Below are positions 13,218 to 33,741 of a DNA stretch of 55,819 nucleotides, in pieces. The DNA is from Nitratireductor sp. XY-223 (GTDB taxonomy: Bacteria > Pseudomonadota > Alphaproteobacteria > Rhizobiales > Rhizobiaceae). The number at the start of each line of letters is the position of its first letter. The first letter of the stretch is position 1. A program made the position numbers and the translations under genes. Location of the stretch: NCBI RefSeq assembly GCF_004959855.1, contig NZ_SPNT01000014.1, forward strand, positions 1 to 55,819. Direction: 5' to 3'. The notes beneath the pieces are model-generated. The model did no database searches and was not told where the DNA came from. It saw only the letters and a list, made by a program, of their open reading frames with translations.

Positions 13218-13226
13218 GTCTATGGC
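13218..13226. repeat. 9-bp target-site duplication, right copy
   Basis: This is the second GTCTATGGC, directly after the right terminal repeat of the IS256 element. The reading frame of the nuclease gene resumes here. Confidence 0.9.
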
Positions 13227-16286: not shown

Positions 16287-16506
16287 TACAATGCACAAGG
16301 GTCTTTTGCATCAGAATCCAAGCAGCGTGCCCCGCGTTGCCTATGAAGTCGAAATATCCCGTCAAACCCACCGGTTATGCGTCTACAATACTTGATGTCA
16401 CCGCCAAATACGCAGGCGACAAAGCACATTGGCGCTGTTGACATATATTCAGCAAATCGAGACATTATGATCATTCCATCAGTGTTCCTGCCCCTATCCG
16501 TAGCAC

Positions 16507-17532
16507 TCAGGGCTCTATGAGCTCGGCATATTCCAGAATTGACAGAGCAGGAAAAATACCCAAGCCACGGGCAACATCAGCCCGGATAACATAGGAAAAC
16601 TCGGGAAGGACCTCGACCGGTATATCAGAAGGATCCTCGCCACCGAAAAGTATACTTTCGGCTTTAATTGCGGTTAATCTCCCCACCTTCCTGTACGGCG
16701 CCACCAAACCATAGAGAGCGTCGGCGCCCTTGAGCATGCGCTCGGCGGATGCGAAGGATGGCAGTCGGTGCGCATTTGCCAGCTTGGTCACATGCGGTGC
16801 GTACTGGCCGATGAAACTGTCCGGCCCAAGATAAAGAACCTGGGAGCCGGTTGCAGCAGCCGCGGCAACAAGATCTGGCAAAGCTTCGGCATCTGGATAA
16901 CCTTCAGAGTCCAACGAGACAGGAAACCGGAAAACACGGATGTTCAATCGAACTCCGATCTCGGATATTTCCTCCACCGCCGACACGGAATTCACCTCCG
17001 TGGGCGTGAATATAATTGCGATCCTGTCGACGGGCATGTATTTCCGCATTGCTTCGATCTGCGATTCGATCGGGACAATATGACTTACGCCGGTTACGTT
17101 GCGCCCTGACGCCCCGAACATCTTAACAATGCGTGACTTTACGGGCCGTGATACCATCGTAAAGACAACCGGCCGATCGGTGATCTGCGGCGGATAGTCG
17201 TTCACCCCTTCCATCAGTCCGGGATCACGCCCGGCGACCCCAAGCGTCGCGGTTGTTCCCCAACAATAAACCAAATCGGGACCGGTCTCCCGGATTTCAT
17301 CCAAAACATGCGGAATACGTTCGGACCGCCGATCTAACGAGCGGGGCAATATTTCAACCGGTAAGTCCAACTGGTCGAAATATTCCCGGAAACCCGATTC
17401 GACCTCGGTTTCCCCGCGCCACAATACCATAAATACGGTCTTCGCCGGTTTCGGACCCGCACGAGCATGAAAGCCGTTGACCGCAAAAAGAGCCGCCAAA
17501 AGCTCACGCCTGGATATTTGCATCAATGTCAT
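16507..17532 (-). CDS. ABC_sub_bind-family substrate-binding protein
   Basis: A protein of about 341 residues matching the ABC_sub_bind family of periplasmic receptors, in which an N-terminal Rossmann-like lobe (VFMVLWRGETEVESGF) is followed by GPDLVYCWGTTATLGV and a second lobe (QVLYLGPDSF, LPSFASAERML). The N-terminus SRRELLAALFAVNGFHARA looks like a short export signal with two arginines. No ABC permease or ATPase is adjacent. Instead it precedes the GNAT and PP2C genes on the same strand, so it more likely supplies ligand information to the sensor phosphatase than feeds a transporter. The start at 17532 is uncertain; GTG 17550 and ATG 17523 are alternatives. Confidence 0.8.
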   Translation of the reverse strand: MTLMQISRRELLAALFAVNGFHARAGPKPAKTVFMVLWRGETEVESGFREYFDQLDLPVEILPRSLDRRSERIPHVLDEIRETGPDLVYCWGTTATLGVAGRDPGLMEGVNDYPPQITDRPVVFTMVSRPVKSRIVKMFGASGRNVTGVSHIVPIESQIEAMRKYMPVDRIAIIFTPTEVNSVSAVEEISEIGVRLNIRVFRFPVSLDSEGYPDAEALPDLVAAAAATGSQVLYLGPDSFIGQYAPHVTKLANAHRLPSFASAERMLKGADALYGLVAPYRKVGRLTAIKAESILFGGEDPSDIPVEVLPEFSYVIRADVARGLGIFPALSILEYAELIEP

Positions 17533-17550
17533 GGTGTTCGTGCGCCACAC

Positions 17551-17972
17551 TCATCGTTTTCCCCAAAGGTACCAGTTCTTTGCGGATGTTCAGCGTATAG
17601 ATTTCATTCCCAGACTTCTTCACGTTGCGCAGATGACGGCGTGGCGCACTGCCATTTCTGCATTGCCCGCCACCATATCTCAAACTGAGCAGCGTGGCTG
17701 TTTGAAACGGGGCCCAAAAGGGTTGGCTTCGCGGTGAACGAATTCATGCCGTTTTGCTGATGATGGCGATGTTCGGACCGAGGCCGCCGGGATCAAAAAC
17801 AGGTCGCCGAACCCGGATTGATCGCGCGCTTCCAAAGAAGCCGAATTCCTGCGCGCACCGCCGGGCCACGCCGGCGCCACATCGACATCGAAACATAACT
17901 ATAGATTTCATAATCATATTTGCGCTGGATTGCTGCAAAATGCAGGCGGCCCGAGCTTGAGGGCACTGGTTT
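17551..17972. other. Divergent intergenic region before cmr2
   Basis: About 420 bases between the receptor gene (minus) and the Cmr2-like gene (plus). No gene is convincing. It should carry promoters for both directions. No repeat-spacer structure is present. Confidence 0.5.
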
Positions 17973-20498
17973 TTGCCGAAGCCATCAAAAAACGAGGCGA
18001 ACAAATTGACAACGGTTCCTTTGGTCGACTGGGAGCAATTGATAATCGCCTATCTGTGCGGTCCCATAGACAGTTTGCCACACAAAAAGGGCGATGAGGA
18101 ATTTGCCGTGCGTCAGATATCAGCGGCTCTGGGAAGAACTGTCAGCAAAGGCGAAATCGAAGCGGTGAATTCGACTTTGGATCGGCTGTTTTCTGCTAGC
18201 GGATGGTTGCCATTGCCGTCGGCTGATGAAGGCCCCAAATGCGACCGTCCTACCGGTTTGTTCCAACCTGAACACACCCTCAGTGGACATGAGCTTGAAG
18301 TAAAAAGCAAATTCATATGCGAGGTAATTTCACGAACAGTTGAGGGTCTGGAAACTTCGAAGCAGCGGTTTTTCGCGCTTTGGCGCATTTTGCCAAGCGC
18401 GCTTGTCGGTGAGTCTGGCGATCGGGTCTCGCATCTTCCTGCCGATGCACGAATGCCAGATCATTCGAATGTCGAAGGCGCTGACAGCGCCAGCGGGTTA
18501 TTGGCAGGCACCTGCCAGGGCATGTATGGCTATGCATATTTGTCCGTCGCACTAAAAATGCAGCAACCGTTTACGGAAACAGCCAGTTCGGTGCAAGATC
18601 TGTGGGCGGGTAACGCCATAATGTCGTGGCTGGCATTCAAGGCCATGGAGCCTGTAATCGATCGTTTTGGTCCTGCCTCAATATTGTTTCCCTCACTGCG
18701 CGAAAATCCATATATGGATATTTGGTTGCATAAGCGCATGAACCTTAAAGCGATTCCGACGGTTAACGATCAATTGGTCCGCATGCCATCGCTGCCAAAC
18801 CGGTTTCTTGCCTTGGTTCCGTGCAGGCCGGACAGATTGATTGCATCTGAACTGGCTGCATTATCTGATCACGCGGCACGTGAAGCTTGGACCCTCTTGG
18901 CTGCAAACGTACGGCATCAGATCGGTCGAGATTTATCCGGATTATACAAGGACTGGGACCGTTCGTGGCGAAACCAGATCGAAAATGTACTGGATGTTAC
19001 GTCAACGGTAATACTCGAACGCGAACTTGACGACGATGTGATTGCAAGGCATGTCGGCAGCCGGTGTTTCGGGGATGCCTGGCTGGCTGCCGCCGAAGTC
19101 CGGTCACTTGCAACCTCTAATCCCCCTGATCACCGCTCATACAACGCGCAAGCTTCGGCAGGACGCTGGCGGGCACACATGGAGATTTTGGAACGTGTTG
19201 TAGATGCAAATTGCGCAGTACGACACATACCCCGGACCGTGGGCGGCAATTCAAATGGCTCATCACCCAAATGCAGCCAGTGCGGTTCGTTTGAGCAGAT
19301 GGGGCCAGCCGAAGCCAGCGCGTCGAACGCGTTCTGGTCGGCGGCTTCGAGTAAGCTGAGCGTGAACGGAACACGGCTGCTGGATGGCGAGCATCTTTGT
19401 GCGATAGCGCTGACAAGGCGATTTGCAGGCCCCGCGTTTCTCGCTTCAGAATTTGGGGTAGAGGCCCGAGACTTGCGAATGCCCGATACGGCCACCATTG
19501 CAGCCGCGGACTGGCTGCAAAAATCCGGTATGGATCCCTCTGAACTTGAAAGAGAATATGGACATTGGAAATCCTCACGGCTTCACCGGTCTCAGCGACA
19601 CAAAGTTGTTCCGCCACCCGGTCTCAGAAACAAAGTCGAAGCAGCCATTCGCGAATATGGCCAACCGCCAACCCACTTCGCGGTTCTGAAAATGAACGGA
19701 GATGATACCGGTGATTGGTTATGTGGAAGGAAGGCCCCCGGGCCTGATGATGTTGTGCATCCCGCGATCGAAAATCATGGCGGGCAAGATTACTCCAACG
19801 GGCTATTGCGCGCATCCCGCCCTGCAGGACCGTGTCAATTCAACGCAGTGACCGCGATCCTGGGACAATTTACCGCGCTTTCCGCGCCACAAATCATTCA
19901 ACACTATAATGGAGCCGTAATCTTCAGTCGCGGCGATGAAATTTTGGCTTTGCTGCCCGCGTTGCGTGCGGTCAACTGCGTGAACGAATTGCATGAAAGT
20001 TTCAAAACGGGCGGTAGGAGATATGGCGGGAAGGAAAAAGGGGCAACCATTTCGGCCGGAATTTCCTACGTGCATTACAAGGATGACCTTCGAAGAGCAA
20101 TCTATACGGCGTGTGAAGCGCAGAAATGGGCTAAGGACATGGGCAAAGACCTTGTTTGTGTTTCTTTCAACCAATCGTCTGGACCGCCGGCATCCGCTCC
20201 ATTGCCCTGGTCGCATTTGGACTGGTTTGCAAATCTGACTTCCTACTTCACCGAGGGCACTGATCTTGGCCGGTCTAAGCAACCAGTCGCCAAACGGTCA
20301 ACTGTGTCTGATCCATCGAATGACAGAACTCATCGGCCCGTTGGCGGCGCCGACGCAGGAAAATCCGCTGGTTGCAAAGGTCAGTGGCTGGAAGATTATC
20401 TGGTTGAAATCACCCGGCGCCGGGTCACGCACAAACAGGCGCGTAAAAACTACATCGCGCTGTGCCGGGGAGCGAAATTTATCGCAAGAGGTCATTAA
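17973..20498 (+). CDS. cmr2: Cmr2/Cas10-like type III-B CRISPR effector subunit
   Basis: An 841-residue protein recognised as Cmr2 (Cas10) by its order of motifs. The VQDLWAGNAIMSWL segment (about 207-220) is the family signature. A zinc-binding region has C434, C437 and C476. The palm regions are FAVLKMNGDDTGDWLCG (569 on) and AVIFSRGDEILALLP (648 on), followed by ATISAGISYVHYKDDLRRAI. Key residues differ from active members: the N-terminal HD nuclease site reads YLCGPIDS where LHDPPDK-like is usual, and the GGDD cyclase motif is RGDE. It is therefore probably dead for DNA cleavage and impaired or dead for cyclic oligoadenylate synthesis. The start is a TTG with GAGGG upstream. The stop overlaps the cmr3 start (TAATG). 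Cmr1, Cmr4, Cmr5, Cmr6 and Cas6 are absent here. Confidence 0.85.
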   Translation: MPKPSKNEANKLTTVPLVDWEQLIIAYLCGPIDSLPHKKGDEEFAVRQISAALGRTVSKGEIEAVNSTLDRLFSASGWLPLPSADEGPKCDRPTGLFQPEHTLSGHELEVKSKFICEVISRTVEGLETSKQRFFALWRILPSALVGESGDRVSHLPADARMPDHSNVEGADSASGLLAGTCQGMYGYAYLSVALKMQQPFTETASSVQDLWAGNAIMSWLAFKAMEPVIDRFGPASILFPSLRENPYMDIWLHKRMNLKAIPTVNDQLVRMPSLPNRFLALVPCRPDRLIASELAALSDHAAREAWTLLAANVRHQIGRDLSGLYKDWDRSWRNQIENVLDVTSTVILERELDDDVIARHVGSRCFGDAWLAAAEVRSLATSNPPDHRSYNAQASAGRWRAHMEILERVVDANCAVRHIPRTVGGNSNGSSPKCSQCGSFEQMGPAEASASNAFWSAASSKLSVNGTRLLDGEHLCAIALTRRFAGPAFLASEFGVEARDLRMPDTATIAAADWLQKSGMDPSELEREYGHWKSSRLHRSQRHKVVPPPGLRNKVEAAIREYGQPPTHFAVLKMNGDDTGDWLCGRKAPGPDDVVHPAIENHGGQDYSNGLLRASRPAGPCQFNAVTAILGQFTALSAPQIIQHYNGAVIFSRGDEILALLPALRAVNCVNELHESFKTGGRRYGGKEKGATISAGISYVHYKDDLRRAIYTACEAQKWAKDMGKDLVCVSFNQSSGPPASAPLPWSHLDWFANLTSYFTEGTDLGRSKQPVAKRSTVSDPSNDRTHRPVGGADAGKSAGCKGQWLEDYLVEITRRRVTHKQARKNYIALCRGAKFIARGH

Positions 20499-21580
20499 TG
20501 AACAACTCTGAAAGCGGGTGTTCTCGGGAAAAATCAAGCTTGCTTCTTCGTATCATGCAAGCCGACGCCGCCGATGGCCAAACAAATGAACACCTGATTG
20601 CACGCGCGCTTTCGACACCCCAATTGTTTTCTGTCGCAATCCAATTTGCAATATGTCGCCAGGTTGGCATCGACATAAACAATGTGACTGAACAGATCCG
20701 CTCTGGAACGAGCCTGAGAGAGGCCATTGCCTGCGAGGGGCCGATTGGCGAAGGCATCTCATCAATCGGTTTGCGAGGACCATGGTTGGGGCACAATGGT
20801 CAAATTCTGTATGCCGTACCCGCGACGCTGAGGCAACCGCAAAACCGTGAAAGCGAATTGTTTCGGCTCGACCCGCTCGCCGAAGCTCTGCCGGGTTGGA
20901 ATGCACCCCTGCCTGGAATGAAACCCCTCTCGTGCAAAGATCGCTATCGCCGGAATAAAGTCCAGGACTTCGTAACGGAAAGCGGCATGAAGCGTTATCT
21001 TGAGGGTGGCGTTCCAAGGCAAGAAGAAATCCTGAGATTACACGGGAAGGAATTCATGAAGAACCCCTGGCCGGCCGCACGTAAGGTTGGGGCTTCAATT
21101 GGTTTGACCGAAGCGGCCGTGGTACATCGAAGTGAGCTTTATCTTTACGTCGAAATTACCGGACAAAAGCTCATCATCGACACAGTTTCTGCAGTAAATA
21201 CAACAATCACATTCAATATAGAAGGTCGGCATGCGGTCCTTGAGACTGTCAAGATGTGCGAACCCATATTTTCAGGCAATACCTTTGAAGCGGCGGACCG
21301 TCGTATGCTTGTCCTTACAACGCCGGCGCTTTTGAACGGCTGGCGCCCAAACGGATTGAAGCTGATTGCGGCTGCAATATCGGACTGTGATGTGGTGCCG
21401 GGCGCTGAACCAAATCAGGTATTCCATGCGCCCGGCTTATTCGCGGTGCCGGCCGGCTCTGTATTTTTTTTGCGGGCGGGAAGGAATACCACCAATCGGC
21501 AAGTACAATCCTTGGGTTTGGAAAGGGACGCCGTGAACGGTTGGGGCTCGGTTCTCGAGGGGACTTGGAATTATGCATGA
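20498..21580 (+). CDS. cmr3: Cmr3-like type III-B CRISPR subunit
   Basis: A 360-residue protein with the layout of Cmr3, the Cas5-like RAMP protein that binds the 5' handle of the crRNA and contacts Cmr2. Recognisable pieces are the N-terminal GPWLGHNGQILYAVPATL, a central KVGASIGLTEAAVV...SELYLYVEI (the position of the conserved glycine-rich GI-x(n)-LY segment), and a C-terminal LFAVPAGSVFFLRAG followed by GWGSVLEGTW. Translation is coupled to cmr2 through a one-base TAATG overlap. Its 3' end overlaps the start of a lipoprotein gene. With no other Cmr subunits in the window it cannot form a full complex unless they are encoded elsewhere. Confidence 0.8.
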   Translation: MNNSESGCSREKSSLLLRIMQADAADGQTNEHLIARALSTPQLFSVAIQFAICRQVGIDINNVTEQIRSGTSLREAIACEGPIGEGISSIGLRGPWLGHNGQILYAVPATLRQPQNRESELFRLDPLAEALPGWNAPLPGMKPLSCKDRYRRNKVQDFVTESGMKRYLEGGVPRQEEILRLHGKEFMKNPWPAARKVGASIGLTEAAVVHRSELYLYVEITGQKLIIDTVSAVNTTITFNIEGRHAVLETVKMCEPIFSGNTFEAADRRMLVLTTPALLNGWRPNGLKLIAAAISDCDVVPGAEPNQVFHAPGLFAVPAGSVFFLRAGRNTTNRQVQSLGLERDAVNGWGSVLEGTWNYA

Positions 21581-21914
21581 ATCTGTTGTGCTGAGATTTG
21601 CTGCTGTGCTGGTTTTACTCGCTGTCCTGGTTGGTTGCGCAAAGGCACCTGAGTCCATCGCACCGGCATATGTGTCCGCGGTCAATTATTCGGGCTGGAC
21701 ATGAAACCAGCTTAGCCAGGAAGCGTTGCACCTGGAAGGTGCTCTTGCCACGGCTTCGCAACAGCAGGAGAAAGCCCGGGTGAATGATGTCGTCGGCGTC
21801 ATACTGATTGGCTTGCCGGTATCATCCTTAAGCGGCGACAATATCGCCCCGCAGATTGCCCGATTAAAGGGTGAGAAGGAAGCAATCAGACAAGCGCAAA
21901 TCAAACGCTGTTGA
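21573..21914 (+). pseudogene. Lipoprotein gene with an in-frame TGA
   Basis: It begins at the ATG at 21573, inside the cmr3 stop region, with a lipoprotein signal (VLLAVLVGC, lipobox ending at C22). It reads to YSGWT, meets TGA at 21702-21704, then continues in the same frame with NQLSQEALHLEGALA, VGVILIGLPVSSLSG and ends IKRC. The post-stop part has clear protein character. Relatives of this small lipoprotein family usually carry cysteine right after the WT, so a TGC-to-TGA change is the simple explanation. Reading through as selenocysteine or tryptophan is possible in principle, but no supporting element was found. Confidence 0.7.
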
Positions 21915-22319
21915 ATAACTTGGGCAAGGAACTGTTTCGGCTGTCCTCCGTGCTTTGTTCCCATTCCGAACGGGATGATTACCGCACAATCATGTCTTTT
22001 GATGCTGCAACCTGGCCCACAGGGATGGTAGGCACCGACAAGAGCGACGACACTTTCATCATGTCCGATGGAAAAACTGGGAAAACGTTGGCAAGTTCAT
22101 CAACCAGGCGGTGTCAAATGTCCTTCGCATGTATGGACCTCCCTCTCATTGCAAGCCTTTTCGATCACGTTGGCATGCGGGCATGTATCCGGCCTGTGAC
22201 CTGGCCATAATGGGGTAGCGCCAAACACATTGGAGGCTTCATGGAGCCGGTGCGAAAACACGGCGTGATTTCCGGTCAGGGTTGCCCTGGCGGTCCATCA
22301 TTGAGCTTGCGATTTCCGG
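21915..22319. other. Intergenic, no gene recognised
   Basis: About 400 bases between the lipoprotein and the IS110-type remnant. The only frames are short and lack coding character. It probably contains the breakpoint of an old insertion. Confidence 0.4.
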
Positions 22320-22503
22320 GGTGGATTGAGCGGTTCGATGGGGCGGAGAGTAGAACTCCTCTTGTTGTTGGCGCAGGACGGCCCAGATAATTCGTGCCAG
22401 TTTTATCGGCGACGGCGACACAGACATTATTGATGTGCGCGGTCTTCATCTTGATTGTCGCGCCGCAGGCGTCCCCAAAACCCACCATTCTTCTGTACCG
22501 CAC
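22320..22503 (-). mobile_element. Remnant of an IS110/IS1111-type transposase C-terminus
   Basis: Two adjacent minus-strand frames together resemble the end of an IS110-family transposase: KTAHINNVCVAVADK in one and IKLARIIWAVLRQQQEEFY in the other, separated by a frameshift. The (V/A)A-x-A-(D/N)K-x-ARIIWA-x-LR pattern is typical. Nothing of the N-terminal catalytic part remains. Confidence 0.5.
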
Positions 22504-22580
22504 AGCCCCGTTCCAGATCAGTATCTGATCTTTGGTCAGGCTTGATTTTCGGCGATGTGAAGGCGCTGATCCGAAGGCGT

Positions 22581-23132
22581 ATGGAAATGTGGCAAATTAT
22601 GCAGCCTCTGACGTGCGATCATCAAAGCGCACGATCAAACAATCAGAGATATGCATTGAAATTCTTCAGATCAATTGCAAATTATTTATCTATACTTTTT
22701 CTTGTTTGGCTGATATTCGCTAATTTTGACATTTCGTTTGATCGCAATGTGATCCGACTGTATGCAACTTCTGAACCATCTGATATTGGAAACAAAGACA
22801 TAATTGGATTTTCTCGGCAGGTCCCTCTTGGTGTTTTGGAGGTACGTTTAAGGCACGGTTCTGTACAAATTACAAAAGATTTTGTTGTAAGTACTTACAA
22901 AAACTGCCTGATTGTCGACTTGAAAAATTGGACCTGCATGGAATCGAATGGTACCTGTGGTTTTGGTCTCTATGAAGGCGTTTACTATACTTGGGCGTGC
23001 CAACATATATCGCCTTTTGAAAAATACACTTTTGTCACCCGCTTGAGATATATCGTTCTTGGCTGCAGTTGGGATTGGGAAGGCGGGCCGCAGCAAATGT
23101 TTACTTGTGCTTTGCGTCCATTTGTCAATTAG
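22581..23132 (+). CDS. Hypothetical single-pass membrane protein
   Basis: A protein of about 183 residues of unknown function in an AT-richer stretch than its surroundings, suggesting separate origin. After a polar N-terminus there is one strong membrane helix (YLSILFLVWLIFANF), then an exported or lumenal domain with several cysteines (YKNCLIVDL, WTCMESNGTCGFG, YTWACQH, LGCSWDW, MFTCAL) that could form disulphides. The frame is open upstream to 22455, but the added residues look non-coding, so the ATG at 22581 is preferred. It has no obvious operon partner and sits between transposon remnants. Confidence 0.6.
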   Translation: MEMWQIMQPLTCDHQSARSNNQRYALKFFRSIANYLSILFLVWLIFANFDISFDRNVIRLYATSEPSDIGNKDIIGFSRQVPLGVLEVRLRHGSVQITKDFVVSTYKNCLIVDLKNWTCMESNGTCGFGLYEGVYYTWACQHISPFEKYTFVTRLRYIVLGCSWDWEGGPQQMFTCALRPFVN

Positions 23133-23192
23133 CACTTACAAGAGATTTTAAGGTGACGCTTTCTGACCAGCGCAACTCGCTGGTGGTCTGCC

Positions 23193-23401
23193 TCAGATGT
23201 GATGAGCAGACGACTGCCGGACATACAGGATGGCTTTGCGCTCCAGATGGTGTGGCCTGATCTTCTCATGCATCATGGATCCGTGCCCTCCCGCTGTACG
23301 ACGGGCTCGCCGTCGATGTGGTTCAGGATCAGGCTGATCATCAGCCTCGTCACGGATTGACGCATCTCGGCGGGCAGCGCCTGCCATTGCGGCGTCTGCA
23401 T
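23193..23401 (-). mobile_element. 5' remnant of a two-gene serine-recombinase module
   Basis: A 42-codon frame (23401 to 23273, TPQWQALPAEMRQSVTRLM...) ends in a TGA that overlaps the ATG of a second frame at 23276, reading MHEKIRPHHLERKAILYVRQ. The latter is the start of the large resolvase/invertase family (the VYVRQSS motif with its catalytic serine), which ends after only 27 residues. The small-ORF-then-recombinase layout is usual for such modules. Only this 5' piece survives. Confidence 0.6.
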
Positions 23402-23693
23402 CTCATCGCTGGTCCCGTGGGCGTTCCGTCGTTGAGCTGTACAACTGGCGCCGGCCACACACCGCATTGCGAGGCAAATCACAGAGGTGGAAGCGGCCTC
23501 CGATCCGACGAGAGAACGCATTCGAGAGCAAAATTACGCGCTTGATTGAAATGATGTCTACGAACCCCGCAGAATCGATTTGAAACCCGGTGTTTGCGAT
23601 AGAAGAAGCACACAAGCGCGTCCTTGCAAAGTCGAGCTACCACCAAGTGCATTTGCCGAATATAGTCATCATCGCGCCGCATATCCGATACCT

Positions 23694-23855
23694 CTATGCC
23701 TCCTCCAGCTGGTCAATTTTCGCGATTAGCGTCTCCTTCGCCAATACAAGTGCCGCCTTGACATCCTCGACATTCTCTTCTGCCTCGGCCAACTCAAGAG
23801 CCTCGACCGCTTTATTTACGGTACGAATGACCGATTGGAGGTCGAATTTTGTCAA
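23694..23855 (-). CDS. Small hypothetical protein, TTG start
   Basis: A frame of about 53 residues read from a TTG at 23855: FDLQSVIRTVNKAVEALELA followed by an acidic, probably helical C-terminal half. It follows the HTH gene by 18 bases on the same strand. It has clean coding character but no ATG and no recognised family, so it is tentative. Confidence 0.4.
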   Translation of the reverse strand: MTKFDLQSVIRTVNKAVEALELAEAEENVEDVKAALVLAKETLIAKIDQLEEA

Positions 23856-23873
23856 GTATGGCCCCGATGGTGG

Positions 23874-24041
23874 TTATTCAGCTTCGTCTTTGGGCCTGGC
23901 AGACGGGTATGGTAATTGCCCGCCAGCGATTTCCGCTATCCTGCCAGCATTGACGCCAAAATACGCGGCGATGTCATGTTGTCGGTCTCCGCGCTGCAGC
24001 ATCCCCAAAATGAGTTCGGTTTGACGGTAGCTCAATGCCAT
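23874..24041 (-). CDS. Small helix-turn-helix protein
   Basis: A 55-residue protein from the ATG at 24041. The sequence LILGMLQRGDRQHDIAAYFG followed by VNAGRIAEIAGG is a canonical helix-turn-helix, of the kind found in sigma-70 region 4-like and phage terminase-type DNA-binding proteins. It ends with a charged tail. It could be a small regulator of a mobile element. It is too short for most gene callers. Confidence 0.6.
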   Translation of the reverse strand: MALSYRQTELILGMLQRGDRQHDIAAYFGVNAGRIAEIAGGQLPYPSARPKDEAE

Positions 24042-24207
24042 GGTTATTGTCCAACGGAGCCGGAACGTTTCCTGAAATCAAGATCACTGCGAACCTGCCG
24101 GGCTATCGTTTGCACGTGCTCGTACATCTCGAATGAAGTCATCGAGATTCCAAAGCCGAGCCCGCTGGTCATTCGAGTTTGCGTCTTCGCTCTTGCGAAT
24201 GAGACAG

Positions 24208-24531
24208 TCATTGGACACAAGCAAACAGGTGTTCATTTACGCAGTCGGTTGGGCTACATGACGTGAAGCCTATATTGGCGTAAGTCTGGCATATGGTGCC
24301 ATTGCATTTCTGCTGCGTGCTTAAATAGAGCGGTTCGCGATTGTGAATGGCACATCCCTCTCTGGCTTTGGCGCGCACTGTTTCTGTACCTTCATCCTTG
24401 TCCGCCTGGATAACAACTTTGTCCGTTTGAAGGTCGGAAATCACAAGAGGTTTTGGAGCGGTGCACCCAACCGGCAAAACGCACACAGCGACCAATGCAA
24501 TCAATTTTCCTTTCGTGTAACGTGATTTCAT
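24208..24531 (-). CDS. Small lipoprotein, hypothetical
   Basis: A 107-residue protein with a lipoprotein signal: KSRYTKGKLIALVAVCVLPV then GC at the lipobox. The mature part has several cysteines (EGCAIHN, QQKCNGTICQ, SCSPTDC, LFACVQ) that may pair. No family is recognised. The ATG at 24531 gives the best signal peptide; an ATG three codons upstream is possible. Long upstream extension in this frame overlaps a repeated GC-rich block and is not coding. Confidence 0.65.
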   Translation of the reverse strand: MKSRYTKGKLIALVAVCVLPVGCTAPKPLVISDLQTDKVVIQADKDEGTETVRAKAREGCAIHNREPLYLSTQQKCNGTICQTYANIGFTSCSPTDCVNEHLFACVQ

Positions 24532-25138
24532 GTGCGGCATAATGGTTTGCCAGGCAAACATCTCATCTGTGTCCCGTGTAGTGGGCGCCGCTGAAACATG
24601 GCTTACAACCACTGCCGCATTCTCCCTTATGGTGCCGACGCGTAAACCGGAGCGCTTAAATACAGAAAGGCCCAGAAGCACAACGGCTCCTGGGCCGCGA
24701 TACGCCACCCCGCTAGGCTGTCGCACAGAAAGCTTGGCAAAGGGCGGTGAGCCAAGCCTACCGCCCGGCGTATGAGAATTTAGGCGCCGGAACGGAATGC
24801 GTGCCTTTGCTTTGCGTACCGCAGCTTGACAAATACACGGTCCGTGCACTCAAGGGGGTATTGTTTCCATCCTGCCGCGGAGAATTTTACCGTCGAGCGG
24901 GCAGCCCAGTTTCACCGGCTGGCCTTCCAGGTATCGGGCACCTGGCAACAAACGGAGGATCACGTTGTCTCGGACCCTTTCACTCGCGGATGCAAAGATG
25001 TTGCTTTTCGGCCACAATGGCCGTTTTTCATCACACAGTGGCAGAACAGCGTCCACTTCCCTGACAACGTAGAATTGACCCCACAACCCGGCGCTGATTT
25101 ATGTTGTGGGAGGCGAATTGGTTGGTAAGGTTTTTGAT
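24532..25138. other. Intergenic with a repeated block and a doubtful ORF
   Basis: Positions 24683-24710 share a block with 8180-8206 (GCTCC.GG.CCGCGATACGCC). A minus-strand frame at 24850-25086 has reasonable codon use (DEKRPLWPKSNIFASASERV...) but no ATG, RBS or family, so it is not called as a gene. The promoter of the downstream porin-like gene should lie at the right end. Confidence 0.4.
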
Positions 25139-26068
25139 ATGAAAACAATGATATTTGCTCGCAGCGCTGGGTTGATCCCCGCGCTTGTTTTCAGCAGCAA
25201 TGTTTTGGCCGCCGATTTGATTGATAGTGAAACGATCACCACTGAAGAATTTGTTGAACGCAGCAGACCGGCTTTTTTCGGCGAGGCTGAGATTTATGGA
25301 AGCCATTTCCACCTTTCCGGAAGTGCAGTTGAGGCTGCGGAGGATGTAGATTATCAGTCCATCGGGGGAGGCATAAAGCTCGGCATCAACTTCGCAGGCA
25401 ACTGGATGATACAAGGCGATTTGGCAGGCGAGGCAACAAATGTCGGCAGCGCAGATGATTCCTATAAAGACAGCATCACCACCACCGGACATGTGGCTTA
25501 CCGCAATGATATGGGACTGATCGGTGCATTTGGCGGGTATCTGGCCACCGATCAGGACAATGATGCCACGGATAGCTCGAACCGTTATTTTGTTGGCGGC
25601 GAAGCTCAGTATTTTGTCGGCGACACGGCAACAATCTACCTGCAGGGTGGTTATCTCGATGGCACCGGAGGCGATGACGATCTCGGCGAGGACTCAATCA
25701 CCGACGCCTGGTTCGCACGCATTGCGGCACGCTATTTCTTCACGCCGAAAACAAGGCTGGACGGTTCTTTTGCCTATGCGGACGGGATCATGGACAACGA
25801 TATCGACTCCGTCGATTTGTATACGCTTGGTGTAGGGCTGGATCATCAGTTCATGGATAACGGTTTGTCGGGTTTCGTGCGCTATGAGTATTCGCACTAC
25901 AACCAGCCAACCGAGGCAGACACAATCAACGAACATGTCATTTTTGCCGGTTTGAAATTCAGTTTCGGTGCAAACTCCTCGCTTCTTGAAGCCGACCGCA
26001 GCGGCGCATCTCTCGATACGCCACCGCTTGCAAGGTGGGTGGCGCAAACCGGCGGGCCTCTGGAATAG
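25139..26068 (+). CDS. Outer-membrane porin-like beta-barrel protein
   Basis: A 309-residue exported protein. The signal peptide is MIFARSAGLIPALVFSSNVLAA. The mature part alternates short amphipathic strands with acidic loops (GGGIKLGINFAGNWMIQGDL, YFVGGEAQYFVGD, TATIYLQGGYL, LYTLGVGLDHQF, GFVRYEYSHY, HVIFAGLKFSFG), the pattern of an outer-membrane barrel. It continues beyond the last typical strand for about 40 residues, so it may carry a periplasmic tail or have an altered end. The ATG at 25139 is preferred over upstream in-frame codons because it begins the signal peptide. The family is uncertain. Confidence 0.75.
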   Translation: MKTMIFARSAGLIPALVFSSNVLAADLIDSETITTEEFVERSRPAFFGEAEIYGSHFHLSGSAVEAAEDVDYQSIGGGIKLGINFAGNWMIQGDLAGEATNVGSADDSYKDSITTTGHVAYRNDMGLIGAFGGYLATDQDNDATDSSNRYFVGGEAQYFVGDTATIYLQGGYLDGTGGDDDLGEDSITDAWFARIAARYFFTPKTRLDGSFAYADGIMDNDIDSVDLYTLGVGLDHQFMDNGLSGFVRYEYSHYNQPTEADTINEHVIFAGLKFSFGANSSLLEADRSGASLDTPPLARWVAQTGGPLE

Positions 26069-26149
26069 ACTTGCTCTCGACCTAAGAGGCGATTCGGGAA
26101 TTGACGGTTGAGCGAAAAGGGAAGGTGTGATTCACCGAGGACCCTGGAC

Positions 26150-26480
26150 CCCTTTCGCTCGGCTCGATCATGTCAGAACGTCCCTGGGACCGCATTCACG
26201 ATGCACTGCACATCGACTGCCGCGACTTGGAAGGCCGCGAGCCGCAACCAAGCGCGGCTATCATCGACAGCCAGTCGGTCAAGACCGGAACGAACGCCAG
26301 GGGCGATGTCGGCTATGATGCGGGCAAGAAAGTGAAAGGGCGCAAGCGCCATATGCTGGTCGATACGGAGGGATTATTGCTATGCTGCGACGTGCATTCG
26401 GCGGGCATACGGGACCGTGACGGTGCCCGCCGCTTGTTCGACAGACTGACGATACGCCTTCCCTTCCTCCAGGTCATCTT
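26150..26480 (+). mobile_element. Internal fragment of an IS5-family transposase
   Basis: The frame [20 protein letters not shown], then [20 protein letters not shown] (with the first catalytic aspartate), [15 protein letters not shown] and [18 protein letters not shown] is IS5-family DDE transposase. Neither the true start nor the rest of the catalytic domain is present. The right boundary near 26480 cuts into the duplicated small-gene region on the minus strand. Confidence 0.8.
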
Positions 26481-26809
26481 CGGTCGGCGGCACGGGCGGC
26501 ACATCGAGCGGAGCGCGCAGGCTTATGCCGGACGGCGTTTCGTAGACCGGCGGCTCGGCGATGCGTATGCGCCCGGTCTTCAGCGAACGTCCCAGCTTCC
26601 GCCCGTCCCCTTGCGGTCCCAGGACCCTGTCCAGCGTCTCGGTCACACAGTCCGCCATCGCCGGGCCACACCCGGGGCGGCGGAAGGTCTTTGCCGAATA
26701 ACTGTTTCAGGATGTCGGCTTTCGCCTCCGCGACAACCACAGTCGCGTCGATCATTAACGCGGCGGCCAGCACAGCATGTCTGATTTTCTTGACCAGAGA
26801 GGGGTACAT
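26474..26809 (-). pseudogene. Broken second copy of the small membrane protein
   Basis: It starts identically to the 138-residue protein at 27015-27431 ([17 protein letters not shown]), then diverges after residue 19 and shifts frame near 26700. A second frame carries the paralogous [14 protein letters not shown]...SKTGRI-like segment ([16 protein letters not shown]). Its 3' end is replaced by the IS5-type fragment. It is a decayed tandem duplicate. Confidence 0.65.
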
Positions 26810-27077
26810 TGTCAAAGCCAGTTTCCTCCTGCGATGCGGACGACGTATGCGACGCCTGGACCTGACGCTGTCGCGCCTTTGCCAGTTCCAGTTCCCGGCG
26901 CCGCCCGATCGTTGTGCCGGGCGGCGTGACAGGGCGGCGGAATGACCTCCCGCGCCTGCATCCTGTCGCATCTTCCCGGGTTCGCGCTCACGTTACGGGC
27001 GGATACCGCGAGCATCACGTGCGGTCCTTCCGGTCACCCAGCCGCCACAAGAGGCGGAGGATTACAAAGACAAAGGC
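26753..27077. repeat. 325-bp direct repeat, copy A
   Basis: It appears identical by eye to 27375-27699, offset 622 bases. It covers the 5' end of one small gene, the whole 68-codon frame and the 3' membrane-helix part of the next gene upstream. It is the visible remnant of a tandem duplication. Confidence 0.9.
26812..27015 (-). CDS. Small ORF, copy A (67 codons)
   Basis: The same sequence as the frame at 27434-27637 because it lies in the direct repeat. It begins where the 138-residue protein ends (TGATG overlap) and ends three bases before the next small gene. It is rich in Ala, Arg and Pro with a short hydrophobic tail. Other frames in this GC-rich stretch are also open, so it is tentative. 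Confidence 0.35.
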   Translation of the reverse strand: MLAVSARNVSANPGRCDRMQAREVIPPPCHAARHNDRAAPGTGTGKGATASGPGVAYVVRIAGGNWL

Positions 27078-27431
27078 AAAGAAGATCGTAACAAAAGTTA
27101 ATCCAAATATCTGTAATATTAGGCGTTCGCGGGCGATCTCTGCTTTTATCAAGTCTGTGGAGCGGTCAACACGGTCTGTCACTTGAAGTTCACCTGTTGC
27201 TCGATGAGTTCGTCGATCTGTTTGTCGGACAATCTGCGGCTCGGCGACCGGGATGCGGCCGGTCTTCGACGTGCCACCGTCCGGCAATTCTCTCTCCGCC
27301 GTGTCAAGCCCGCGAGTCCTGGCCATTCCCTCGGTTATCCAGTCCGCCATCACCGCGCCTCCAGTCGCGTCGGCCATTAACGCGGCGGCCAGCACAGCAT
27401 GTCTGATTTTCTTGACCAGAGAGGGGTACAT
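27015..27431 (-). CDS. Small membrane protein with C-terminal helix
   Basis: A 138-residue protein. An N-terminal hydrophobic segment ([19 protein letters not shown]) may be a signal or anchor. The middle is polar (SKTGRIPVAEPQIV) with a predicted helical stretch (STDLIKAEIARERLI), and a C-terminal membrane helix (FGLTFVTIFFAFVFVILRLL) is followed by a basic end. RBS GGAGG lies close to the ATG at 27431. The C-terminal helix is shared with the 42-residue protein at 27637, an effect of the tandem duplication. No family is recognised. It belongs to the minus-strand unit divergent from the membrane helicase gene. Confidence 0.6.
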   Translation of the reverse strand: MYPSLVKKIRHAVLAAALMADATGGAVMADWITEGMARTRGLDTAERELPDGGTSKTGRIPVAEPQIVRQTDRRTHRATGELQVTDRVDRSTDLIKAEIARERLILQIFGLTFVTIFFAFVFVILRLLWRLGDRKDRT

Positions 27432-27699
27432 TGTCAAAGCCAGTTTCCTCCTGCGATGCGGACGACGTATGCGACGCCTGGACCTGACGCTGTCGCGCCT
27501 TTGCCAGTTCCAGTTCCCGGCGCCGCCCGATCGTTGTGCCGGGCGGCGTGACAGGGCGGCGGAATGACCTCCCGCGCCTGCATCCTGTCGCATCTTCCCG
27601 GGTTCGCGCTCACGTTACGGGCGGATACCGCGAGCATCACGTGCGGTCCTTCCGGTCACCCAGCCGCCACAAGAGGCGGAGGATTACAAAGACAAAGGC
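27375..27699. repeat. 325-bp direct repeat, copy B
   Basis: Partner of 26753-27077, apparently without mismatches. The spacing between equivalent points is 622 bases; the DNA between the two copies is gene-specific sequence that is not repeated. Confidence 0.9.
27434..27637 (-). CDS. Small ORF, copy B (67 codons)
   Basis: The start overlaps the stop of the upstream 42-residue membrane protein by one base (TGATG) and the stop lies three bases before the next start, so the spacing is operon-like. The composition (SANPGRCDRMQAREVIPPPC) gives no clue to function. A competing frame in the same region is also open; the operon spacing is the main evidence. Confidence 0.4.
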   Translation of the reverse strand: MLAVSARNVSANPGRCDRMQAREVIPPPCHAARHNDRAAPGTGTGKGATASGPGVAYVVRIAGGNWL

Positions 27700-29859: not shown

Positions 29860-32800
29860 ATGGTTGGGTATTTTCGCAGTATCGGGATTTTGGTGCGGAT
29901 TATCCTGATATTGGCCGGTCTTTATGCGGTCGCGCCGGAGAAATCTCAGGCGCAGTCTGCGCAGGTTCGACAGATCCAGATCCAGCTCAACGCTTATGGA
30001 TATGACGCAGGACCGGTGGACGGGTTGGAGGGGCCGAGGACGCGCGCGGCAATAGCTGCATTCCAGGAAGCGAACGGAATTCCGGTGACGGGTCAGCCGG
30101 ACTCGACAACGACAAGACTCCTGCTGGACAACAGGCTCGAGGCACCGACGCCGCGGAAACCCGAAAAACAAAGATACGAAGCCAACCCGGACCGGCAGCC
30201 CTTGCTGCAGAAGTCGCCGCGTCTCAACACGCCGCAAAGCAGCGATGAAGGCATCGGAGAAGTCGCGGCGCCGCGTATGCCCGGACCGCAAGGCAGGGTG
30301 CGGGAAGGCCGGGAAACGGGCAAAACGCCGGTCAATACAACAACGCTCATGATCGGTTTGGCATTGCTCGGATCCATGCTTGCGGATGCGCTTGTGCTTT
30401 CGAATTTCATCCGCCGCCGGGATGCGGAGGTTGCGGAGCGTTGCAGGCCGGTCTCTCCGCGCGGCTTCGCCCTCGCCGGCAAGGCGCATGCGCGGTCGGT
30501 CGAACAGTTGCTCGCCCTGGCACCGGTGATCGATCGTCTCAAGCAGCCAGACCGTTATCCGGCAGCCTGTTTGTTCAATCCGTTTGTCGAAACGGCCGTT
30601 GAAGCCGCCAACGTGCTTCCGATCCATGCCGGATCACTGCCGGAAAGTCAGCGGGAACTTCTGCGCGAGGTCGTTGCGTTTGCCGCCGATCCAGGGCGGG
30701 CGCGGCGGGCGGCGGTCGAGGTGTTCGTGAAAGGCGAAATCGGAGAGATGCGTGCATTCTTCGACACTATCGAGCGGAACCCGCTGACGCCCGAACAACG
30801 GCGCGCGGTCGTCACCGACGAGGACGCCACGCTCGTCCTTGCAGGCGCGGGTTCCGGAAAGACCGGCGTCATCGTTTCCAAGGCGGCCTATCTGATCGAA
30901 AGGGGGATTCGCAAGCCGGAGGAAATTCTCCTGCTTGCCTTTGGCAAGGACGCCGCCGCCGAAATGACGGACCGCATCAGGCGGCACTCCGGCGCCGCCG
31001 TCGACGCGCTGACCTTTCACGCGCTTGGCAACAGGATCATACGCGAGGTCGAAGGCCGTGCACCCCCGCTGGCGGCCCATGCGAGCGATGACAAGGGGCT
31101 GCGCGCGTTGTTGCGCGACATACTGGTCAACGATGTCGCGAAGAAAGCGGCTATGGGCGGCCTGCTTCTGGACTGGTTTGGCGGACTCTTGCTGCCCTAC
31201 GCAAGCGCGTGGGATTTCAGGACACTTGCGGAATATTATCAGTGGGTAAGGGCGCATGAATTGCGCTCGCTCGCGGGCTACCGGGTAAAGAGCTTTGAGG
31301 AGTTGCTGATATCCAACTGGCTCTACCGGAACGGCATCGAGCACGAGTACGAACCGGAATACCCTTTACCGGCCGATGCCCGCGGCACCTACAGGCCGGA
31401 TTTCCGGCTCACGCAGAGCGGTGTCTACATCGAACACTTCGGGGTTCGAAATAGTTGCGCGCCGGACGGGTCCATCCGCCTGGAGACCGCCCCCCAAGTC
31501 GACCGGGAACGGTACCTTGAGGAAATGGAATGGAAGCGGAAGGTGCACCGTGACAACGGAACAATCCTCGTCCAGACCTACAGCTTCGAAAATGTGGAGG
31601 GCCGGCTGCTTGAAGCACTCCGGCAAAAGCTCGCCCTTTATGTCGAGCCGAAGCCTGTCCCGGAAGATCAGCTCTTCGAAAGACTGTCGGAACTGGGCCA
31701 GATCGATGCCTTTACGCAAACGCTCGCAACGTTCCTGCGCCACTTCAAGGGTTCAGGCGCGTCGCTCGACCAGTGCCGTTCCAGGTGCGCACCAGGGCAA
31801 GCCGGGGCCCGCAATCGCGCGTTCCTGAAAATATTCGAGAAGGTGTTGTCCGCCTATGAGGAGCGCCTGGGCGACCAGATCGACTTCGAAGACATGATCA
31901 CTCGTGCGGCCGGCCATGTCGAGGCGGGCCGCTATCAAAGCCCCTTTCGGCATCTTGTCGTCGACGAGTTCCAGGACATTTCGGAAGGACGGGCGCGGCT
32001 TCTGCGCGCCCTGAAGGCACAGCATGCGGATGCGCGGCTGTTTGCGGTCGGCGATGACTGGCAGTCGATCTTCCGCTTCGCCGGCTCGGACATCCGCCTC
32101 ATGCATGACTTCGGCAAGGAATTCGGCGGGTCCATGGGCTCCGAACGCGGTGTCCACAGCATGATTGACCTGGGGCGGACCTTTCGCAGCGTGGACAGGA
32201 TTGCACTGCCCGCGAGGCGCTTTGTCCTTCGCAATCCGTCACAGATCAAAAAGCAGGTTGTCGCGGCGGCCGGCACCGACACGCCCGCCATCAGACTGGC
32301 CTTGCATGAGTACGGACAGGACGCCGCCGCGCTGAGGGCCAGCCTTGCGGAACTCTCCGCCGCCGCATGCGGTCAGGCAAGCGTCCTTCTCCTTGGCCGC
32401 TACAACGCGCGGAGACCGCCGAACATCGAGACCACGGAGGCGGAATTCCCGAATCTGTCCGTCACATTCAAGACCGTGCATCGTTCCAAGGGGCTCGAGG
32501 CGGACCACGTCATCATCCTCAAGGCGGAAGCCGGAACCATGGGGTTTCCCTCGGAAATCGTCGATGACCCGCTGCTCGACCTGGTCCTTCCCGAACCCGA
32601 GAACTTCGACCACGCCGAGGAACGCCGCCTGTTCTACGTGGCGCTTACAAGGGCGCGCAAATCGGTCACGATTCTGGCGGATCGAACAAAGCCTTCCGTA
32701 TTCGTTCGCGAACTGGCCGATGATCCGCAGTACGGGACCATCGAAACCGGCGACCCCGGCGTCGCCGACATGCAGTGCGGCGCATGCGGCGGCCGTATAT

Positions 32801-33072
32801 TGAAGAAGAACGGCAGGAACGGCCGGCCGTATTTTCATTGCGAGCACCGACCGCTTTGCGATCAATGGCTGCCAAGCTGCGGTGCCTGCGGCAATGACCT
32901 GCCGGCGGCCGGCGACAGCAGCCTTGAGACCAAGATCTGTTCCTGCGGAGCCGCGTATTCTACCTGTCCGGAATGCGGCGACGGCTGGCTTGTGCACCGC
33001 GATGGCCCATATGCCGAATTTTTCGGGTGTGTACGGTATCCTAAATGCAGCGGCAAAAAGATCAGCACATGA
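29860..33072 (+). CDS. Membrane-anchored SF1 helicase with peptidoglycan-binding domain
   Basis: A 1070-residue protein of unusual architecture. Residues 8-26 form a signal-anchor, 36-88 a PG_binding_1 domain (IQIQLNAYGYDAGPVDGLEG, then TRAAIAAFQEANGIPVTG), 163-184 a second membrane helix, and the rest is a UvrD/HelD-like SF1A helicase. Helicase motifs are complete: Walker A AGAGSGKT at 328-335, VVDEFQDI near 701-707, GDDWQSIFRFAG, TVHRSKGLE at 872-880 and FYVALTRAR at 925-933. Between motifs lies a nuclease-like insert (KSFEELL near 477, YRPDF at 511-515, YIEHFG at 523-528) resembling PD-(D/E)xK folds found inside some helicases. The end has zinc ribbons starting C973/C976. Predicted topology puts the wall-binding domain in the periplasm and the helicase in the cytoplasm. 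ATG 29860 is preferred to TTG 29830. Confidence 0.85.
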   Translation: MVGYFRSIGILVRIILILAGLYAVAPEKSQAQSAQVRQIQIQLNAYGYDAGPVDGLEGPRTRAAIAAFQEANGIPVTGQPDSTTTRLLLDNRLEAPTPRKPEKQRYEANPDRQPLLQKSPRLNTPQSSDEGIGEVAAPRMPGPQGRVREGRETGKTPVNTTTLMIGLALLGSMLADALVLSNFIRRRDAEVAERCRPVSPRGFALAGKAHARSVEQLLALAPVIDRLKQPDRYPAACLFNPFVETAVEAANVLPIHAGSLPESQRELLREVVAFAADPGRARRAAVEVFVKGEIGEMRAFFDTIERNPLTPEQRRAVVTDEDATLVLAGAGSGKTGVIVSKAAYLIERGIRKPEEILLLAFGKDAAAEMTDRIRRHSGAAVDALTFHALGNRIIREVEGRAPPLAAHASDDKGLRALLRDILVNDVAKKAAMGGLLLDWFGGLLLPYASAWDFRTLAEYYQWVRAHELRSLAGYRVKSFEELLISNWLYRNGIEHEYEPEYPLPADARGTYRPDFRLTQSGVYIEHFGVRNSCAPDGSIRLETAPQVDRERYLEEMEWKRKVHRDNGTILVQTYSFENVEGRLLEALRQKLALYVEPKPVPEDQLFERLSELGQIDAFTQTLATFLRHFKGSGASLDQCRSRCAPGQAGARNRAFLKIFEKVLSAYEERLGDQIDFEDMITRAAGHVEAGRYQSPFRHLVVDEFQDISEGRARLLRALKAQHADARLFAVGDDWQSIFRFAGSDIRLMHDFGKEFGGSMGSERGVHSMIDLGRTFRSVDRIALPARRFVLRNPSQIKKQVVAAAGTDTPAIRLALHEYGQDAAALRASLAELSAAACGQASVLLLGRYNARRPPNIETTEAEFPNLSVTFKTVHRSKGLEADHVIILKAEAGTMGFPSEIVDDPLLDLVLPEPENFDHAEERRLFYVALTRARKSVTILADRTKPSVFVRELADDPQYGTIETGDPGVADMQCGACGGRILKKNGRNGRPYFHCEHRPLCDQWLPSCGACGNDLPAAGDSSLETKICSCGAAYSTCPECGDGWLVHRDGPYAEFFGCVRYPKCSGKKIST

Positions 33073-33360
33073 CCCTGTTTCCGGGGTGCGTCGTGGCAGG
33101 GCGCCTTGCGGGTGCGAACCGGCCCGGCACTTGCCGTTTCGATGGCGGCCCGTGCGCATCATGGGAGGCAATGGACGGGTCCGAAGCACCGGGATGGACG
33201 GATTTCACCGGGCGGCCATCGGGGCCCAGCACAATGGAACGTTGCGAAAGTGGCCCCGCAGGACTCGCTGGAGGGCATGAAACAATAGACGACAGACATG
33301 ATGTCGGAATCTACTCTGCAGTTTGGCAGTCAAGGAATGTAACAGGAGTGGAATGCCGTG

Positions 33361-33741
33361 ATGCGGTTTGAGAGGTCCTTCCTTAACGAGCTGCGCGATC
33401 GTGTGCCGATTTCGGACATCATCGGCAAGCGCGTCTCATGGGACAAGCGCAAGACCAACATTTCGCGCGGCGACTGGTGGGCCTGCTGCCCGTTCCACGG
33501 CGAAAAGACGCCGAGCTTTCACTGCGAGGACCGCAAGGGCCGCTACCACTGTTTCGGCTGCGGCGTGTCGGGCGACCATTTCCGCTTTCTGACCGAGCTC
33601 GACGAGCTCTCCTTTCCGGAGGCGGTGCGCTACGTCGCGGACGTAGCGGAGGAACTCGACGGGCTCTCCTTTCCGGAGGCGGTGCGCTACGTCGCGGACG
33701 TAGCGGAGATCGCCCCGCCGGGCCCGGGATCCCAAGGTTGA
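33361..33741 (+). pseudogene. Truncated DnaG primase zinc-finger with internal duplication
   Basis: 126 residues equal to the N-terminal zinc-binding domain of DnaG: VPISDIIGKRVSWDKRKTN, then CCPFHGEKTPSFHCEDRKGR and YHCFGCGVSGDHFRFL, giving the CHC2-type C-x2-H...C-x2-C ligands. A 57-bp segment coding LSFPEAVRYVADVAE is duplicated in tandem, after which the frame ends; the RNA polymerase and helicase-binding domains are missing. It is about one fifth of a normal primase. It may be a duplicated fragment of the chromosomal gene or a stand-alone DNA-binding zinc finger. It lies about 290 bases after the helicase on the same strand. Confidence 0.75.
33606..33708. repeat. 57-bp in-frame tandem duplication
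   Basis: Two copies of a 46-base identical block (33606-33651 and 33663-33708) lie 57 bases apart, exactly 19 codons, inside the DnaG-like fragment. The bases between differ slightly, so the duplication has begun to diverge. Confidence 0.9.

What the first reader, a model, noticed from the sequence alone, without database searches (positions are those of the whole stretch)
29860..33072. Helicase predicted to straddle the membrane with a periplasmic peptidoglycan-binding domain
Seen: signal-anchor, PG_binding_1 domain, second membrane helix, full SF1 helicase motif set, a nuclease-like insert and zinc ribbons, all in one uninterrupted frame of 1070 residues. Known: PG_binding_1 domains act outside the cytoplasm and UvrD-type helicases inside. 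Inference: the protein is fixed at the envelope and could act on DNA as it enters or leaves the cell (phage, conjugation or uptake), a logic similar to defence systems that couple wall-anchored parts to helicases.
Basis: partly seen in the sequence, partly recalled or inferred. Interest (0 to 1): 0.85.

Follow-up and report, generated by a model that had tools for sequence, protein, structure and literature searches.

The report
Wall-tethered helicase with nuclease-like domain
A bacterial gene joins a predicted cell-wall-binding domain outside the membrane to a DNA-unwinding motor inside it, and a similar wall tether turns up on a distant relative of the motor and on proteins of a known anti-phage system, which hints at a way of catching foreign DNA at the cell border.

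Summary
One open frame (29860-33072, +, 1070 aa) encodes a signal sequence, PG_binding_1, a linker, a membrane helix, then a complete helicase-IV-like UvrD motor with an inserted endonuclease-like domain and zinc ribbons. The only two strongly hydrophobic stretches flank the wall domain. In 69 homologue rows the PG_binding_1-TM part was not found; homologues at 51-62% identity start with an ordinary ~120-residue domain, which is replaced here. Two facts make it more than a random fusion: (1) a distant homologue (46% identity) carries LysM + TM, next to cas2 and a type I methylase; (2) the same SP-PG_binding_1-linker-TM layout sits on 4 of 14 SngA-type proteins (Shango anti-phage system) read. 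Against: PG_binding_1 is generic, the exact domain order was seen once, and internal starts in the membrane helix cannot be excluded by sequence. The helicase family is patchy and often plasmid-borne; the neighbourhood link to defence genes is suggestive only. Best reading: an envelope-tethered helicase(-nuclease) acting on DNA at the inner membrane, probably defensive. Architecture is well supported by sequence; topology, nuclease activity (canonical catalytic lysine missing) and defence are inference. New variant of a known kind.

The parts
29860..33072 (+). whole gene, 1070 codons plus stop; predicted inner-membrane helicase
   Evidence: open frame, Pfam
29860..29952 (+). signal peptide or signal anchor, residues 1-31
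   Evidence: KD 19-mer 2.32 at residues 7-25; cleavage-site judgement recalled
29956..30123 (+). PG_binding_1 domain, residues 33-88
   Evidence: Pfam PF01471 E 1.1e-17
30124..30342 (+). linker, residues 89-161, modelled as disordered
   Evidence: AF2 pLDDT 24-32 per 10-residue block for most of it (no alignment depth there)
30343..30408 (+). membrane helix, residues 162-183, followed by IRRR
   Evidence: KD 19-mer 2.04 at 162-180
30478..30783 (+). residues 207-308, helical part shared with homologues; the fusion point lies just before
   Evidence: alignment A1
30784..32724 (+). UvrD/helicase-IV motor, residues 309-955
   Evidence: Pfam, NCBIfam, conserved motifs, Foldseek UvrD/Rep hits
31222..31653 (+). 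endonuclease-like insert, residues 455-598 (E481, D514, E525 conserved; F527 at the Lys position)
   Evidence: AF2 model, T7 endonuclease I profile match, Foldseek
32776..33057 (+). C-terminal zinc ribbons, residues 973-1066
   Evidence: PF01396, Cys pairs in alignment A1

Best explanation
The gene makes one inner-membrane protein. A signal sequence exports the first ~160 residues, so that the PG_binding_1 domain can hold or sense the peptidoglycan; one helix crosses the membrane; the cytoplasmic part is an ATP-driven helicase-IV-type motor carrying a T7-endonuclease-I/restriction-like domain and zinc ribbons. This keeps a DNA-processing motor at the inner face of the envelope. Most likely use: a one-gene anti-invader (phage or plasmid) device in which wall disturbance or entering DNA brings the motor onto incoming DNA, by a logic like that of Shango (membrane SngA with ATPase and helicase) and Zorya (wall-binding ZorB). 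Shown by sequence: the architecture, intact motor motifs, absence of the tether in the homologues read, a LysM-TM analogue, the same layout on SngA. Inferred: topology, DNA target, trigger, nuclease activity, defence.
For: Domain content; two hydrophobic stretches only; motor as conserved as in its relatives. N-terminal domain replaced: homologues align from about residue 205-215 and have another N-terminus. LysM (E 4.9e-14) + TM (KD 2.06) on homologue L069 in a different supported clade, whose neighbours include Cas2 (E 1e-43) and a type I methylase (E 1e-238). SP-PG_binding_1-linker-TM on four SngA proteins, each matched by Pfam TerB_N and PADLOC SngA. Patchy spread: 11 of 397, 9 of 385, 16 of 398 genomes, own counted. 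In 8 of 10 plasmid neighbourhoods opened (of 20 listed) I judged defence- or toxin-antitoxin-type genes present. Zorya: wall-binding domain of ZorB required for defence (PMC11890865, passages).
Against: The exact domain order was found once. PG_binding_1 is common: 84 of 101 related genomes match residues 1-215 at E 1e-6, mostly over that domain, and 4 of the 7 plasmid hits to it are lytic transglycosylases, not defence proteins. The gene lies among broken genes and a transposase fragment. Neighbour enrichment against controls is weak: about 5 of 73 against 2 of 73. The insert lacks the canonical catalytic Lys. The ribosome-binding site is weak and internal starts at 173/179 are no weaker. No function was tested.
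Confidence: 0.5

Rival explanations
1. An accidental in-frame replacement in a decaying region put an exported wall-binding domain in front of a helicase-IV gene. The protein is tethered, or the tether is merely tolerated, and it does ordinary repair or nothing special.
For: Exact order found once; broken neighbours and repeats nearby; helicase IV is a repair-type helicase family (established knowledge, recalled).
Against: Motor conservation like that of relatives although the branch from the nearest soluble homologue is 0.36 changes per site; a LysM-TM homologue and SngA proteins show comparable tethers.
Confidence: 0.25
2. It works in DNA uptake or conjugation: a tethered helicase that handles single strands entering or leaving through the envelope.
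For: Homologues are common on plasmids, some of them conjugative; the LysM homologue lies beside a relaxase-like gene (named by eye).
Against: No transfer or competence gene was recognised among the window ORFs scanned (not all ORFs were scanned); most relatives lack the tether.
Confidence: 0.13
3. The tether is not made: translation starts inside the membrane helix (ATG 173 or GTG 179), or the junction is an assembly error or a dying gene.
For: Weak site at the first ATG (AGG, spacing 5), equal 3-base matches at 173 and 179; the window is one whole contig of a 59-contig draft and no second assembly was seen.
Against: Residues 1-88 form an export signal plus a 64-bit wall domain in the same frame with coding-like composition; no long repeat found at the junction; motor intact.
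Confidence: 0.12

Closest known systems
DNA helicase IV (NCBIfam NF008276, E. coli HelD type)
   Same: Best NCBIfam match of the motor, 417 bits
   Different: Below the 543-bit cut-off; wall domain and membrane helix instead of the N-terminal domain; nuclease-like insert and zinc ribbons
SngA of Shango
   Same: Four alphaproteobacterial SngA proteins have signal, PG_binding_1, linker and TM in front of the cytoplasmic part; Shango also pairs with a helicase
   Different: SngA is TerB_N/TerB_C, not a helicase; the window protein has no TerB domain and the genome has no SngA match
ZorAB of Zorya
   Same: Wall-binding domain coupled through the membrane to DNA-acting effectors (PMC11890865, passages)
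   Different: Separate proteins, MotAB-like motor, OmpA-type wall domain
GajB of Gabija
   Same: UvrD-like helicase; best PADLOC match of the motor, E 6.7e-41
   Different: No membrane or wall domain in the match; no GajA partner among the 10 window ORFs scanned
T7 endonuclease I / I-Bth0305I nuclease domains
   Same: Insert matches the T7 endonuclease I profile (E 3e-4); top fold hit I-Bth0305I (prob 0.99, E 0.03)
   Different: Phe at the Lys position; sits inside a helicase; no Foldseek hit passes E 0.001
LysM-TM helicase L069 (G813)
   Same: Same motor family (46% identity) with a different wall-binding domain and a membrane helix
   Different: Keeps the usual N-terminal domain; no signal peptide seen; LysM instead of PG_binding_1

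Membership tests
UvrD/REP SF1 helicases (PF00580) | Match over the curated cut-off and intact Walker A, DEFQD and later motifs | tested here: met
   144 bits against 23; motifs conserved
DNA helicase IV equivalog (NF008276) | Score at or above the curated cut-off | tested here: not met
   417.2 against 543 bits
DNA helicase IV equivalog (NF008276) | The family's usual N-terminal domain | tested here: not met
   replaced by signal-PGB-linker-TM
PG_binding_1 proteins (PF01471) | Match over the curated cut-off | tested here: met
   64.4 against 23 bits
PG_binding_1 proteins (PF01471) | Binding to peptidoglycan | not testable with these tools
   needs a pull-down
PD-(D/E)XK-type nucleases, T7 endonuclease I-like | Core fold plus catalytic D, E and K | tested here: inconclusive
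   fold predicted; E481, D514, E525 conserved, Lys position is F527; K559 is invariant and might stand in
Shango | SngA with TerB domains, SngB, SngC | tested here: not met
   no TerB domain; no SngA match in the own genome at E 1e-15
Gabija | GajA partner beside GajB | tested here: not met
   no GajA among 10 window ORFs scanned with PADLOC, not all ORFs
Zorya | ZorA and ZorB | tested here: not met
   none among 10 window ORFs scanned with PADLOC, not all ORFs
Anti-phage defence gene | Protection against phage or plasmid | not testable with these tools
   needs plaque and transfer assays

The most novel reading that the evidence does not exclude
A movable wall-tether layout (PG_binding_1 or LysM outside, flexible linker, one membrane helix) has been attached several times to cytoplasmic DNA-handling defence machines, namely helicase-IV-type helicase-nucleases and SngA of Shango, giving single-chain sensors that fire a DNA motor exactly where phage or plasmid DNA crosses the wall.
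Probability: 0.3. Interest if true: 0.85.

Novelty: new variant of a known kind. Interest (0 to 1): 0.6.

Why it matters
How cytoplasmic anti-phage helicases and nucleases find incoming DNA is largely open. A single protein that bolts a wall-binding domain to a helicase with a nuclease-like domain, with a LysM counterpart and a similar tether on a proven defence family, gives a compact and testable model: cut off the wall domain, keep the motor, and see whether protection is lost.

Tried and rejected
Downstream start: GTG 290 and ATG 297 would remove conserved residues; starts at 173 and 179 could not be excluded. N-terminal part as a separate gene: crude regular expressions over 72 homologue loci found no PG-binding motif and one LysM motif, fused; a diverged domain could be missed. 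Shango, Gabija and Zorya membership: rejected (see table). Relatives of the whole fusion: none found. Genome contigs, one scan, 4 relatives, all matched from residue 206 or later; viral contigs with P0001 none, with alignment A1 26 relatives, of which the N-termini that could be read show no wall domain; plasmids 411 records and phages 72, none covering 80% of the query in one place. N-terminal 215 residues in 101 related genomes: matches in 84, the listed ones ending in the wall domain or linker, list cut. LysM-helicase residues 1-330 in plasmids: 3 records, LysM part only. LysM-helicase in viral contigs: 10 relatives, matches from residue 212 or later; their N-termini were not read. Order-, class- and phylum-wide searches scored only the top 2 candidates per genome, so rates may be too low.

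Neighbour control: 12 homologue regions fetched, 12 control regions asked for, 4 absent. I compared 7 of the 12 homologue regions (all their 73 called ORFs, helicase left out) with 73 of the 110 ORFs called in 8 control regions. PADLOC printed 25 of 61 matching families for the first set and all (1) for the second. The difference is too small to rest on. Tree: 48 of 73 candidate rows used; 6 left out by name as partial or cut (L010, L011, L113, L114, L118, L125), 19 lost because my motif cut missed them, among them L124. Short N-terminal helices in L024, L112, L117 (KD 1.47-1.60) are borderline and carry no weight. The full-length model gives no reliable fold for residues 1-199. Literature: searches for a wall-binding domain with a helicase or a membrane-anchored UvrD helicase listed no paper describing one; listings only.

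Full report
OBSERVATION. The frame 29860-33072 (+) is open for 1070 codons. Pfam finds PG_binding_1 at residues 33-88 (E 1.1e-17), UvrD motor domains from 309 to 939 and Top1-type zinc ribbons at the end. Hydropathy gives two 19-mer peaks above 1.6, at residues 7-25 and 162-180. The first heads a signal-like stretch ending SQA|QS; the second is followed by IRRR. Whether or not the signal is cleaved, the wall domain is predicted outside and the motor inside. No dedicated topology predictor was available.

THE MOTOR. The best NCBIfam model is DNA helicase IV, 417 bits, under the 543-bit cut-off. Homologues share the part from about residue 207 on. P0001 departs from 5 of the 181 columns that are invariant in the other 13 sequences, against 0-9 over all 14 leave-one-out rows, so the helicase does not look decayed. 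The insert (455-598), modelled alone from 19 sequences, folds with mean pLDDT 91.4. Its profile finds T7 endonuclease I at E 3e-4; by fold the top hit is the catalytic domain of I-Bth0305I (prob 0.99, E 0.03), no hit passes E 0.001, and T7 endonuclease I is not among the 50 rows shown. E481, D514 and E525 are conserved but the Lys position is Phe. It may cut with another residue (K559 is invariant) or only bind DNA.

THE N-TERMINUS IS A REPLACEMENT. Homologues at 51-62% identity that I read begin with an ordinary domain of about 120 residues. In P0001 that domain is gone; signal, wall domain, linker and membrane helix stand in its place. In a tree of 48 motors P0001 pairs with the Sneathiella homologue, which has the ordinary N-terminus (100/98). 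The same-genus genome G005 has a homologue in another clade and the six other genus members searched have none at E 1e-30, which points to horizontal transfer.

RECURRENCE. Among 69 homologue rows of useful length (near-duplicates included) one has a wall-binding domain: L069 (G813), with LysM (E 4.9e-14), a short linker and a membrane helix (KD 2.06) in front of the usual N-terminal domain, and no signal peptide in the frame. It lies in a different supported clade; the homologue of a same-genus genome (L104) shows no LysM. Near it are Cas2 (E 1e-43), a type I methylase (E 1e-238) and, named by eye, relaxase-like and VapC-like genes (PADLOC gave nothing for the last). L124, from a viral contig, starts with a very hydrophobic helix (KD 3.29) without a wall domain.

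A PARALLEL IN A KNOWN DEFENCE SYSTEM. tblastn of residues 1-215 against plasmids hit 7 records: four are lytic transglycosylases or the like, as expected of a common wall domain; three are TerB_N proteins (two Mesorhizobium, one of them broken, and one Azospirillum). A further search with the Mesorhizobium protein led to others. Of 14 SngA-type proteins whose N-termini I read (L057, L105, L136-L147), 4 have PG_binding_1 plus a membrane helix (L057 Mesorhizobium AR02, L105 and L143 Azospirillum, L142 Methylobacterium nodulans, the last with a shortened domain, E 6e-8), 5 have N-terminal helices without it (L137, L138, L144, L146, L147) and 5 show neither (L136, L139, L140, L141, L145; L141 read only from its second open piece, L140 a distant relative, L136 possibly incomplete). 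The 4 match the PADLOC SngA model at E 8e-77, 7e-94, 2e-85 and 2e-71. Shango restricts phages in Pseudomonas (PMC10250203, passages); in Zorya the wall-binding domain of ZorB is required for defence (PMC11890865, passages). My searches for Shango with TerB, wall-binding or membrane terms (listings) showed no paper giving SngA a wall domain.

CONTEXT. The helicase family is sporadic: 11 of 397 genomes of the order, 9 of 385 of the class, 16 of 398 of the phylum, own genome counted, at E limits 1e-90, 1e-80, 1e-60. It matches 411 plasmid records at E 1e-5, distant UvrD-type helicases included, and 26 IMG/VR loci, several close to a contig end. Of 10 plasmid neighbourhoods opened out of 20 rows listed, 8 hold genes I judged, from their annotated names, to be defence- or toxin-antitoxin-type (H2, H4, H5, H9, H13, H15, H19, H20); H1 and H14 do not. 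These have no control. With a control, PADLOC hits at E 1e-10 fall on about 5 of 73 neighbours of 7 homologue loci (BrxD-type 2, PDC-S36, a reverse transcriptase, MkoA; from the 25 of 61 families printed) against 2 of 73 genes of 8 other regions, 7 of them from the same genomes (mad2; a generic methylase model, as one search shows). Suggestive only. Around the window gene lie a DnaG ribbon fragment, a GIY-YIG piece and a transposase fragment, and 8-12 kb upstream Cas10/Cmr2 and Cmr3.

MECHANISM. I commit to an envelope-tethered helicase(-nuclease) that works on DNA at the inner membrane, most likely against incoming phage or plasmid DNA (0.5 for the whole statement; the encoded architecture alone about 0.9). 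Accidental fusion 0.25, DNA transfer 0.13, tether not made or artefact 0.12.

NOVELTY. The parts are known; I found no description of PG_binding_1-TM-helicase IV or of its LysM counterpart in the searches (listings). New variant of a known kind.

Noticed in passing
window 17973-21580 (+): Cas10/Cmr2 (PADLOC E 4e-56) and Cmr3 (E 4e-23) of a type III-B-like CRISPR system; no repeat array was found in 13000-26200.
   Followed up: partly
window 48116-52773 (-): A RecQ/DEAD plus UvrD helicase split over two ORFs that overlap by four bases; the genome has a longer open frame of 1709 aa with a UvrD match on contig C19.
   Followed up: no
window 33358-33741 (+): DnaG zinc-ribbon fragment with an internal repeat of about 17 residues, just downstream of the helicase gene.
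   Followed up: no
window 26474-26971 and 27015-27593 (-): Two neighbouring ORFs share the same first ~75 residues: a duplicated block beside a transposase fragment at 26170-26784.
   Followed up: no
L145 96-4555 (Polymorphobacter megasporae plasmid): A Shango-like operon (TerB_N protein, ATPase, helicase) lies head to head with ZorA (PADLOC E 1e-222) and an OmpA-family gene: two defence systems side by side, one of them with a wall-sensing type of protein.
   Followed up: partly
L143 1151-4567 (Azospirillum sp. B510 plasmid): The SngA gene is annotated from 2393 only; the open frame runs from 1151 and includes signal, PG_binding_1 and membrane helix.
   Followed up: partly
L132 6218-7606, L134 6216-7607, L135 6125-7510: A hypothetical protein of about 462 aa ends about 25 bases before the helicase homologue in three rhizobial plasmids: a possible partner gene.
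   Followed up: no
L069 65-3936 (G813): LysM-TM-helicase gene lies downstream of a type II-like cas2.
   Followed up: partly
L124 4413-7829 (viral contig): A helicase relative of 1139 aa starts with a very hydrophobic helix (KD 3.29), a membrane anchor without a wall domain.
   Followed up: no
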